DNA of 64,000 bases from contig NZ_JACBZO010000001.1 in the NCBI RefSeq assembly GCF_013409005.1, positions 806,001 through 870,000 of the forward strand, given 5' to 3'. This document shows, piece after piece, positions 15,459-17,899 of the stretch. The first letter of the stretch is position 1. Each line of letters begins with the position of its first letter. The notes under the pieces were generated by a model. It did no database searches. It saw only the letters and a list, made by a program, of their open reading frames with translations, and had not been told where the DNA came from. The stretch comes from Demequina lutea (GTDB taxonomy: Bacteria; Actinomycetota; Actinomycetes; Actinomycetales; Demequinaceae). Position numbers and translations under genes: made by a program.

Positions 15459-16412
15459 ATGGAAGCCCGAACGTCCAAGGTTTCTGTTATCGGCGCAGGT
15501 GCGGTCGGCGCCACCCTCGCGTACGCGGGCCTGATGCGCGGCTTCGCGCGCACGGTGGCGCTGTATGACATCGACACGGCCAAGGTCGAGGCAGAGGCTC
15601 TCGACCTCGCACAGGGTATTCAGTTCATGCCCGAGGCGAAGGTCATCGGGTCCTCCGATGTCGGGGTGTGCGCGGATTCCGACGTGATCGTGATCACCGC
15701 AGGCGCCAAGCAGCAGCCCGGCCAGTCGCGGCTCGAACTCGCCGAGGCGACGATCGGCCTGATGGACAAGATCATCCCTCCGCTGATCGAGGTCTCGCCG
15801 CACGCGATCTACATCCTCGTGACGAATCCCGTCGATGTGGTCACGTATGCGGCCCTCAAGGCCTCGGGGATGAGCCCGTCCCAGATGTTTGGTTCGGGTA
15901 CGGTGCTTGACTCGTCGCGCTTGCGCCACCAGGTGGCGGTTGAGTGCGGCGTGGCCGTATCCAACGTGCATGCCTACATCGCCGGAGAGCACGGCGACTC
16001 CGAGGTGGCACTGTGGTCATCCGCGACCATCGGCGGTGTGCCGCTACTCGAGTGGCACGATGCTTCCGGCAAGGTCGTCATGACCAAGGACGTGCGCGAG
16101 CGCATGCACCGCGACGTGCTTCAGTCGGCGTACAAAATCATCGAGGGCAAGGGAGCGACGAACTACGCGATCGGTGTGGCGGGTGCGCGCATCGTCGAGG
16201 CCGTGTTGCAGGACCAGAACAGGGTGCTTCCCGTGTCGACCCTCATCGACTACCCCGGCGTGGGTGAGATCTGCATGTCGCTGCCCGCAGTCATCGGCCG
16301 CAGCGGCGTCAAGCACCGTGTGGACGTGCCGCTCGACGCCGCCGAGAGCGCCGCGTTGGATGCTTCTGCGCGTTCGATCCGAGAGGTCGCAGACCGCTTC
16401 GGCGCCGTTTAG
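15459..16412 (+). CDS. ldh: L-lactate dehydrogenase
   Basis: NAD-dependent interconversion of pyruvate and lactate in the cytosol. 317 residues from the ATG at 15459 (an earlier in-frame ATG at 15414 is upstream of the family start). Visible signatures are the Rossmann GAGAVGATLAYA, LVTNPVDV, GSGTVLDSSRLR and the active-site loop GEHGDSEVALWS with the catalytic His. The last codons (ADRFGAV, stop) lie in a 24-base sequence repeated after trpB at 17876-17899. The present C-terminus may therefore have been altered by insertion of the trpB segment. Confidence 0.95.
   Translation: MEARTSKVSVIGAGAVGATLAYAGLMRGFARTVALYDIDTAKVEAEALDLAQGIQFMPEAKVIGSSDVGVCADSDVIVITAGAKQQPGQSRLELAEATIGLMDKIIPPLIEVSPHAIYILVTNPVDVVTYAALKASGMSPSQMFGSGTVLDSSRLRHQVAVECGVAVSNVHAYIAGEHGDSEVALWSSATIGGVPLLEWHDASGKVVMTKDVRERMHRDVLQSAYKIIEGKGATNYAIGVAGARIVEAVLQDQNRVLPVSTLIDYPGVGEICMSLPAVIGRSGVKHRVDVPLDAAESAALDASARSIREVADRFGAV
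16385..16408 (+). repeat. 24-bp direct repeat, left copy (3' end of ldh)
   Basis: Bases from GGTCGCAGACC to GGCGCCGT are identical to 17876-17899. This copy encodes ldh residues VADRFGAV just before the stop codon. The two copies enclose the trpB-like gene, as expected for a segment inserted at the ldh 3' end. Confidence 0.9.
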
Positions 16413-16546
16413 TTGTACTCGGCTTGCGCGCGAGCCCGGCGGGTGGCATAGGGGCGGCCCCACCGCGGTGCGACGGGTCCCGGCGCGGACCCCCGCCCCT
16501 AATATGGGATCACGGCCCTAAACGAACGACCACGATGAGGTGTGTG
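16413..16546 (+). promoter_or_regulatory. ldh terminator-like hairpin and trpB promoter region
   Basis: A GC-rich inverted repeat (GGCTTGCG/CGCGAGCC, 16421-16436, 7 of 8 paired) follows the ldh stop and could end its transcript. A -10-like TAATAT is at 16500-16505, with no clear -35. GAGG precedes the chosen trpB ATG by six bases. No Trp codon run or T-box was seen. Confidence 0.45.
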
Positions 16547-17776
16547 ATGAGCGAGCAAACCAGCACGCGTGAGAACTTCCGCCGCGCGACCGTCCCCGAT
16601 GACAACGGCTTCTTCGGCGCCTACGGAGGGCAGTTCCTCCCGCCGCAACTCGAGGGCCCGTTCGCCGAGATCACGAAGGCCTATCACGAGATCGAGAACG
16701 ACGCGGCGTTCATCAATGAGCTGCGCTACATCCGGACGCACTTCCAGGGTCGCCCGACGCCTGTCTATCACGCACGCACGCTCTCCCTGGAGAACGGCGG
16801 CGCGCAGATCTACCTCAAGCGCGAGGACCTCAACCACACCGGCGCGCACAAGCTCAACCACTGCATGGGCGAGGGCCTGCTGGCCAAGTACATGGGCAAG
16901 AAGAAGCTCATCGCCGAGACTGGCGCGGGTCAGCACGGCGTCGCGCTCGCGACCGCGGCCGCCCACTTCGGCCTCGAGTGCGAGATCCACATGGGCGAGG
17001 TCGACATCGCCAAGCAGGCGCCCAACGTCAGCCGCATGCAGCTGCTCGGCGCGACGGTGGTCCCTGTCAGGCACGGGCTGCGCACGCTCAAGGAGGCGGT
17101 GGACTCGGCGTTCGAGGCCTACCTTGCCGACTTCGAAAACTCGATCTACTGCATCGGCTCCGTCGTGGGCCCGCACCCGTTCCCGATGATGGTCCGCGAC
17201 TTCCAGAAGGTCGTCGGCATCGAGGCCCGCGAGCAGTTCCACGAGATGACGGGCAACCTGCCCGACGTCGTCGAGGCCTGCGTCGGCGGCGGGTCCAACG
17301 CGATCGGCATATTCTCGGCGTTCCTCGACGACCCGGTCGAGCTCATCGGCGTCGAACCGCTCGGCCGCGGGACGGCCGTCGGCGACAACGCGGCGACGAT
17401 GACCTACGGCATGCCGGGCGTCATCCACGGGTTCAAGTGCTACCTGCTGCAGGACGAGGAGGGGCAGCCGTCGCCGGTGTACTCCTGCGCGAGCGGCCTG
17501 GACTACCCGGGCGTCGGCCCAGAGCACAGCCACCTCAAGGACACCGGCCGGGTGCGCTACGTCACGGCGAGCGACGAAGAGTGCCGCGATGCCTTCTTCG
17601 CGCTGAGCCGCAAGGAGGGCATCATCCCCGCGCTCGAGAGCGCGCACGCCGTCGCGCACGCCCTGGTCACCGCCCGCGAGATGGGCACAGGGACCGTGCT
17701 GGTGAACCTCAGCGGACGCGGTGACAAGGACATGGATTACGTCATCGAGAACTGGGGCATCGGCCAGGACAGCTGA
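16547..17776 (+). CDS. Tryptophan synthase beta chain-like PLP enzyme, standalone
   Basis: A 409-residue fold-type II PLP enzyme. Family features include HTGAHKLN with the PLP-binding Lys, AETGAGQHG with the catalytic Glu, the phosphate-binding loop GGGSNAIG, and the end VNLSGRGDKDMDYV. Normal TrpB joins indole and serine to tryptophan in a complex with TrpA. No trpA or other trp gene is in the window. Several usually fixed positions differ: KLNHCMGEG where TrpB normally has a Gln after the second Gly, and GSVVGPHPFP in place of GTAAGPHPYP. It may be an auxiliary TrpB for indole salvage or a related beta-replacement enzyme. The segment lies between 24-bp direct repeats and appears richer in GC than ldh. 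Confidence 0.85.
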   Translation: MSEQTSTRENFRRATVPDDNGFFGAYGGQFLPPQLEGPFAEITKAYHEIENDAAFINELRYIRTHFQGRPTPVYHARTLSLENGGAQIYLKREDLNHTGAHKLNHCMGEGLLAKYMGKKKLIAETGAGQHGVALATAAAHFGLECEIHMGEVDIAKQAPNVSRMQLLGATVVPVRHGLRTLKEAVDSAFEAYLADFENSIYCIGSVVGPHPFPMMVRDFQKVVGIEAREQFHEMTGNLPDVVEACVGGGSNAIGIFSAFLDDPVELIGVEPLGRGTAVGDNAATMTYGMPGVIHGFKCYLLQDEEGQPSPVYSCASGLDYPGVGPEHSHLKDTGRVRYVTASDEECRDAFFALSRKEGIIPALESAHAVAHALVTAREMGTGTVLVNLSGRGDKDMDYVIENWGIGQDS

Positions 17777-17805
17777 GCGAACGGCGGCTGGGGCGACGCC
17801 GAGGA

Positions 17806-17858
17806 GGCGCCGGCCCGCTTCCGCTTCTCCTTAGCGCACCCGAGCGGGCGCCGGCGCC
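17806..17858 (+). terminator. Terminator-like hairpin after trpB
   Basis: Inverted repeat of GGCGCCGGCCCGCT (17806-17819) with AGCGGGCGCCGGCGCC (17843-17858), pairing with a two-base bulge and a 23-base loop. There is no T tract, as is common for high-GC actinobacterial terminators. It lies inside the segment flanked by the direct repeats. Confidence 0.55.
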
Positions 17859-17875
17859 AGGGAGTGGTCGGCCTC

Positions 17876-17899
17876 GGTCGCAGACCGCTTCGGCGCCGT
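17876..17899 (+). repeat. 24-bp direct repeat, right copy
   Basis: Identical to 16385-16408. In the ldh-like frame the sequence continues VADRFGAVED and stops at 17907-17909, right against the end of the convergent DUF2510 gene. This looks like the original ldh 3' end left behind by an insertion. Confidence 0.85.

What the first reader, a model, noticed from the sequence alone, without database searches (positions are those of the whole stretch)
16385..17899. trpB-like gene inserted at the 3' end of ldh between 24-bp direct repeats
The last 24 coding bases of ldh before its final bases (16385-16408) recur exactly at 17876-17899. The right copy continues in the ldh-like frame as VADRFGAVED and a stop that abuts the convergent DUF2510 gene. 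The simplest history is ldh next to DUF2510, then insertion of a roughly 1.5-kb trpB segment that rebuilt the ldh end. Two 60-base samples of trpB were 73% and 75% GC by hand count, against 68% and 63% in ldh. No integrase is present, so this would be a small 3'-end-targeted cassette.
Basis: partly seen in the sequence, partly recalled or inferred. Interest (0 to 1): 0.75.

Follow-up and report, generated by a model that had tools for sequence, protein, structure and literature searches.

The report
Extra trpB gene inserted after ldh
In one bacterial lineage a foreign second copy of a tryptophan-making gene landed just behind a lactate dehydrogenase gene and left a 24-base repeat at its far edge; it looks like an ordinary small gene insertion rather than a new mobile cassette.

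Summary
The 24-mer is exact at 16385-16408 and 17876-17899 and occurs nowhere else in the 3.1-Mb genome at up to 3 mismatches. Twenty order-4 Markov versions of the window gave no exact repeat over 18 bp.

Insertion is well supported. This trpB occurs in 3 of 44 genus genomes and beside ldh only here. In 5 of 29 relatives examined ldh directly faces a DUF2510-like gene, two of them in this genome's ldh clade. The gene is not the native trpB; most named relatives are outside Actinomycetota.

The 'cassette' reading is not supported. The two congeners and Pengzhenrongella carry the gene without an exact bracketing repeat of 14 bp or more, its non-coding flanks match nothing in the genus, and no integrase with this core was found. 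The GC contrast is mostly absent (67.5% against 65.4%).

Best reading: a recent single-gene insertion by illegitimate recombination that duplicated 24 bp of target. A possible trpB remnant, in the interval where congeners keep the gene, hints at relocation. Interest is low.

The parts
15459..16412 (+). ldh, L-lactate dehydrogenase; last codons lie in the left repeat, stop TAG 16410-16412
   Evidence: TIGR01771 above cut-off, Ldh_1_N and Ldh_1_C; 74-88% aa identity in the relatives listed
16385..16408 (+). left copy of the 24-bp direct repeat (3' end of ldh)
   Evidence: exact match to 17876-17899
16409..17875 (.). 1467-bp unique inserted segment
   Evidence: no DNA match in the genus outside trpB and its 25-bp leader (E <= 0.001); the junction lacks it in 5 of 29 relatives examined
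16522..16546 (+). short leader shared with the trpB copies of G033 and G034
   Evidence: blastn matches begin at 16522 and 16524; alignment A2
16547..17776 (+). second trpB, 409 aa, tryptophan synthase beta family
   Evidence: TIGR00263 531.8 bits, cut-off 392.45; PALP; 89-90% DNA identity in G033 and G034, the only 2 others of 44 genus genomes
17777..17875 (.). GC-rich (78.8%) downstream flank of trpB, one weak terminator-like hairpin at 17803-17822
   Evidence: composition, pattern scan; fold z-score -0.14
17876..17899 (+). right copy of the 24-bp repeat, in frame with the presumed original ldh end VADRFGAVED-TAG (stop 17907-17909)
   Evidence: sequence; overlaps the DUF2510 stop at 17906-17908
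17906..18319 (-). convergent DUF2510/DUF4190-like small membrane protein gene
   Evidence: PF10708 44.3 bits above cut-off, PF13828 29.4 below its cut-off of 35; a relative follows ldh in 5 of 29 relatives examined

Best explanation
A DNA piece of about 1.5 kb carrying one laterally acquired trpB gene inserted, in this lineage only, into the tight junction where ldh meets the convergent DUF2510 gene. The two joints on the target overlap by 24 bp, so the last ldh codons are present on both sides. The left copy serves as the present ldh end (stop codon complete 4 bp after the repeat); the right copy is the leftover original end. The most likely mechanism is illegitimate (end-overlap or short-homology) recombination during acquisition or relocation of the gene, not a cassette with its own recombination sites. 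Shown: the repeat, the derived insertion, the foreign trpB. Inferred: the joining mechanism, and that TrpB works alone on free indole plus serine beside the native TrpA-TrpB.
For: This trpB is beside ldh only in G000; of 44 genus genomes only G033 and G034 also carry it, elsewhere (a few genomes are incomplete, down to 50%). In 5 of 29 relatives examined a DUF2510-like match begins 12-107 bp after the ldh stop; G012 and G032 of these share G000's ldh clade, support 100/100. 24 of 24 repeat bases are identical although pS between these species is 0.53-0.63 for ldh, pcrA and native trpB, so the event is young on that scale. Between the window and the other copies homology covers the leader and the coding region to about 10 bp before the end of the gene, with no common ends beyond. 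None of 13 loci has an exact repeat of 14 bp or more around trpB within 1.5 kb (two of the 13 hold under 100 bp upstream). Native trpB and trpA are intact. Small variable segments are a described class; 10-18% have flanking repeats, mostly under 30 bp, and illegitimate recombination is proposed for a large share (PMC2884548, passages).
Against: A stop directly after the left repeat is what a 3'-end-targeting element would arrange; chance gives it at roughly 5% per codon (my estimate). 24 bp is long for a simple staggered break. Ku was not found in this genome, so classical end joining is unlikely. The genome holds 10 tyrosine-recombinase matches, some of which could act in trans. PMC2884548 ties repeats around variable segments to deletion by slippage rather than to insertion. 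In 24 of the 29 relatives, G033 and G034 among them, no DUF2510-like gene was found behind ldh, so the ancestral neighbour is not uniform. In G034 two inexact repeat pairs (20 nt 85%, 14 nt 93%) bracket trpB.
Confidence: 0.62

Rival explanations
1. A site-specific integrase placed a small circular element, or a larger one since reduced, at the ldh 3' end; the 24-bp repeats are attL and attR and the element carried a mimic of the ldh end.
For: Anatomy fits: identity block at a gene 3' end, gene end rebuilt with an immediate stop. Ten PF00589 matches in the genome, none in the window.
Against: No room for a recombinase in the insert outside trpB (138 and 99 bp). The 24-mer is absent from viral contigs as an exact match and, at up to 2 mismatches, occurs in 1 of the 395 other order genomes, as often as the reversed control. 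Flanks match no phage record. What lies behind ldh in the 24 relatives without DUF2510 was looked at only in G017, where it is a sucC-like ORF and no integrase.
Confidence: 0.2
2. Intragenomic relocation: trpB formerly stood between a siderophore-interacting flavoprotein gene and an EamA transporter gene, as in G033 and G034, and moved or was copied to ldh, leaving a fragment behind. (A source for the insert; it does not exclude the mechanism of the best explanation.)
For: A 36-42 bp piece 86-89% identical to the trpB 5' end lies in that same interval in G000 (C1:345343-345384). Alignment score 52-54 against at most 38 in 3000 shuffles each, for the G000 and G033 copies.
Against: The piece is short and not in the same slot (next to the transporter, not the flavoprotein). 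With the G034 copy the score is 38, reached by 1 of 3000 shuffles. Another short match exists elsewhere (29 bp, 93%, E 1.9e-4 against 1.6e-5). trpB is closer among the three genomes than ldh, pcrA and native trpB are (dN 0.029 against 0.069-0.130), which favours lateral transfer.
Confidence: 0.22
3. Ancestral ldh-trpB-DUF2510 order, with trpB deleted between the 24-bp repeats in relatives.
For: Slippage between repeats under 30 bp is the route PMC2884548 favours for repeat-flanked segments (passages).
Against: Needs repeated losses in relatives spread over the ldh tree. The repeat copies are still identical in a genus with widely diverged synonymous sites.
Confidence: 0.05

Closest known systems
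Small variable segments or microdiversity loci in bacterial genomes (PMC2884548, passages read)
   Same: Short non-mobile DNA at a junction that relatives lack, flanked by a direct repeat under 30 bp; illegitimate recombination is proposed for a large share of the class
   Different: That study compared strains within species and tied flanking repeats to deletions; here the comparison is among species and the segment is one complete metabolic gene that looks inserted
Cis-mobilizable elements and degenerate integrative islands at gene 3' ends (recalled)
   Same: Repeat at both edges, host gene 3' end rebuilt, no recombinase of its own
   Different: No related active element or recurring attachment core found; trpB homologues are not bracketed by exact repeats of 14 bp or more in 13 loci scanned
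Stand-alone or second TrpB proteins (PMC11917138, PMC11085991, passages read)
   Same: A TrpB without a neighbouring trpA, plausible indole-to-tryptophan activity
   Different: Only 2 of the 6 stand-alone-activity residues described for LBCA TrpB are present, by my reading of the alignment

Membership tests
Small variable segment (PMC2884548) | Segment absent at the same junction in relatives | tested here: met
   5 of 29 relatives examined have the empty ldh-DUF2510 junction
Small variable segment (PMC2884548) | No recognised mobile element in the segment | tested here: met
   trpB fills all but 138 and 99 bp; these flanks match no phage record and one plasmid record each, short, E 0.01 and 5e-6. 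Overlapping ORFs in other frames were not searched
Small variable segment (PMC2884548) | Variation among strains of one species | not testable with these tools
   One genome per species held
Integrase-dependent cassette or CIME | Identical att-like repeats at both edges | tested here: met
   24 of 24 bp
Integrase-dependent cassette or CIME | Same core used by a related element with an integrase | tested here: not met
   None in own genome at up to 3 mismatches, viral contigs (exact) or 395 other order genomes at up to 2 mismatches, apart from one match at control level
Integrase-dependent cassette or CIME | Shared element ends among copies | tested here: not met
   Shared DNA is the 25-bp leader and the coding region; no exact bracketing repeat of 14 bp or more in 13 loci, two of them with under 100 bp upstream; inexact pairs in G034
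Integrase-dependent cassette or CIME | Excision or circular form | not testable with these tools
   No reads or cells
Integron gene cassette | GTTRRRY core at the junctions (motif recalled) | tested here: not met
   Not present in or across either repeat by eye (sequence); IntI itself not searched
Insertion sequence | Transposase in the element | tested here: not met
   Outside trpB the insert has only 138 and 99 bp; no transposase family was searched as such
TrpB, TIGR00263 | Score above the curated cut-off | tested here: met
   531.8 against 392.45 bits

The most novel reading that the evidence does not exclude
A non-autonomous single-gene cassette that uses the ldh 3' end as its attachment site, is moved in trans by a chromosomal recombinase, and has hopped within the genome from the flavoprotein-EamA locus, leaving a scar there.
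Probability: 0.08. Interest if true: 0.6.

Novelty: new member of a known kind. Interest (0 to 1): 0.22.

Why it matters
It is a clean, young example of how a single metabolic gene is added to a chromosome without visible mobile machinery: both joints, the empty site in relatives and a possible former locus can be seen. If excision were shown it would point to trans-mobilised one-gene cassettes outside integrons.

Tried and rejected
Structured 3' flank (attC-like or terminator): fold z-score -0.14 and one weak terminator pattern, rejected. A longer duplication including TAGTTG after both repeats: local alignment no better than shuffles, P 0.41 after and 0.73 before the repeat, rejected. End joining by Ku: no Ku match in the genome (the family was found in 1 of 14 controls). 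Foreign origin from GC content: whole-gene GC is ordinary, third positions raised. Phage or plasmid carriage: one viral contig at 71% aa; 21 phage-collection records, 3 at 60-80% identity and 18 below; 130 plasmid records, 5 at 60-80% and 125 below; none close. Integrase downstream of ldh in G017: the neighbour looks like sucC by its resemblance to the window ORF at 21514-22713, a name given by eye. Trans-integrase core elsewhere: none beyond control level.

Full report
What is there. The window holds ldh (15459-16412), then a 409-aa trpB (16547-17776), then a convergent DUF2510 gene (17906-18319, minus strand). The 24 bases 16385-16408 recur exactly at 17876-17899. In the left copy ldh ends GAV-TAG; the right copy in the same frame reads VADRFGAVED-TAG, and its stop shares bases with the DUF2510 stop, as in a compact convergent pair (sequence). 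The unique insert is 16409-17875, 1467 bp, of which 138 bp lie before and 99 bp after trpB.

Is it more than chance. Among exact direct repeats 60-6000 bp apart the next longest in the window are 19 and 17 bp; 20 order-4 Markov simulations gave at most 18. In 319,553 bp of genus loci outside the window, two of them from the own genome, 6 exact pairs of at least 20 bp were found, so the repeat alone is not extraordinary. The 24-mer has only these two places in the genome at up to 3 mismatches.

Is it an insertion. All 44 genus genomes have some match to the ldh-trpB query. trpB at 89-90% DNA identity occurs only in G000, G033 and G034, and in the latter two it is not beside ldh; some genomes are incomplete (50-88% in G011, G036, G035). 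I examined the ldh end in 29 of the 43 other genomes: in 5 (G012, G026, G027, G030, G032) a DUF2510-like match begins 12-107 bp after the ldh stop, convergent; in the other 24, G033 and G034 among them, no such match was found in the 1.0-1.5 kb held. An ldh protein tree groups G000 with G012, G032, G033, G034 and G036 (100/100; drawn with a midpoint root); inner forks of that group are weak except G033 with G034. The empty junction is therefore present inside and outside the group and the trpB junction only in G000. No relative seen ends exactly in GAVED, so the precise original end is inferred. All 24 repeat bases are still identical, while pS between these species is 0.53-0.63 for ldh, pcrA and native trpB, so the event is recent on that scale.

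What the gene is. The trpB scores as TIGR00263 but is not the native copy: an intact native trpB (403 aa) lies at C1 about 1.71 Mb between a trpC-like ORF (named by eye) and trpA, and is 53% identical to the window TrpB. In a 101-row tree (61 of the 120 listed database proteins, 33 of 80 fetched loci, 7 genome copies) the window protein sits with metagenome proteins P0001 and P0002, then with G033, G034 and P0004, within a clade that also holds Pengzhenrongella frigida and a Micrococcales MAG. Of the 80 loci kept from at least 583 related stretches, 2 carry an actinobacterial title; the others are mostly Kiritimatiellota, Verrucomicrobiota, Spirochaetota, Clostridia and Bacteroidota. Only 3 of 47 family genomes and 3 of 396 order genomes (G177 at 76%, on a long branch) matched at the strict limits used.

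History within the genus. dN between G000 and G033 or G034 is 0.029 for this trpB, against 0.069-0.130 for native trpB, ldh and pcrA. Between G033 and G034 it is 0.020 against 0.025-0.036. The gene is thus too similar across the split for plain vertical descent; its dS (0.42-0.51 against 0.93-1.38) points the same way but may be lowered by its high GC3 (93.9%). Against this, the order of branching within the trio (G033 with G034, G000 outside) is the same in the trpB and ldh trees. G033 and G034 share one locus, between a siderophore-interacting flavoprotein gene and an EamA transporter gene. In G000 the same interval holds a 36-42 bp piece 86-89% identical to the trpB 5' end. That is suggestive of an earlier copy there, but the piece is short and stands next to the transporter, not the flavoprotein; another short match (29 bp, 93%) exists elsewhere in the genome.

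Mechanism. Against a dedicated cassette: the window's trpB shares with other copies a 25-bp leader (G033 and G034 only) and the coding region, no ends beyond. Of 13 loci scanned, none has an exact repeat of 14 bp or more around trpB within 1.5 kb; three have 13-bp pairs, 367-1193 bp outside the gene on the low-coordinate side, and two of the 13 hold under 100 bp upstream, so they hardly test it. In G034 two inexact pairs (20 nt 85%, 14 nt 93%) do bracket the gene; short two-copy families of this sort are often chance. The flanks have no match in the genus or in phages and one short plasmid match each (the right one is 57 bp at 83%). The 24-mer is absent from viral contigs (exact), and among the 395 other order genomes appears once at 2 mismatches, as often as the reversed control. 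For a cassette: ten tyrosine-recombinase matches in the genome, none of them in the window, and the stop directly after the left repeat. Ku is not found. In a within-species study 10-18% of small variable segments are flanked by repeats, mostly under 30 bp; its authors propose illegitimate recombination for a large share of the class and link the repeats to deletions by slippage (PMC2884548, passages). I favour a one-off illegitimate insertion whose two target joints overlap by 24 bp; the joining step itself is inferred.

Function. The protein probably condenses indole with serine. TrpB is linked in print to salvage of outside indole in Bifidobacterium, with a cited case of paired TrpB proteins in an archaeon (PMC11085991, passages). 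Of the six residues tied to stand-alone activity in LBCA TrpB (PMC11917138, passages) I read two (T, S) as kept in the alignment. Whether it works alone is untested.

Verdict. Observation confirmed, insertion supported, cassette idea not supported; an ordinary though tidy case of single-gene gain.

Noticed in passing
L132:9344-9385 (G000:C1:345343-345384): Short piece 86-89% identical to the trpB 5' end, in the interval where G033 and G034 carry trpB; possible remnant of an older copy.
   Followed up: partly
L035:16-59 and 3811-3854: 44-bp exact repeat in G034 that looks like the 3' part of a tRNA-Lys gene (by eye, not run through a tRNA finder), near the trpB locus; a possible island attachment site.
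   Followed up: no
L136:2236-6394 (G033): Extra stretch of about 4 kb in G033 between two blocks that are contiguous and 95-96% identical in G034; this interval is a variable region.
   Followed up: no
window 17802-17858: GC-rich 57-bp stretch downstream of trpB, 83% identical to an unannotated place in a Streptomyces plasmid; possibly a terminator-like hairpin.
   Followed up: no
window 21987-22005 and 22674-22692: 19-bp exact direct repeat inside the sucC-like ORF 21514-22713 (name by eye).
   Followed up: no
window 16547-17776: TrpB carries F and K at the two alpha-beta interface positions where LBCA TrpB has A279 and M280 (my reading).
   Followed up: no
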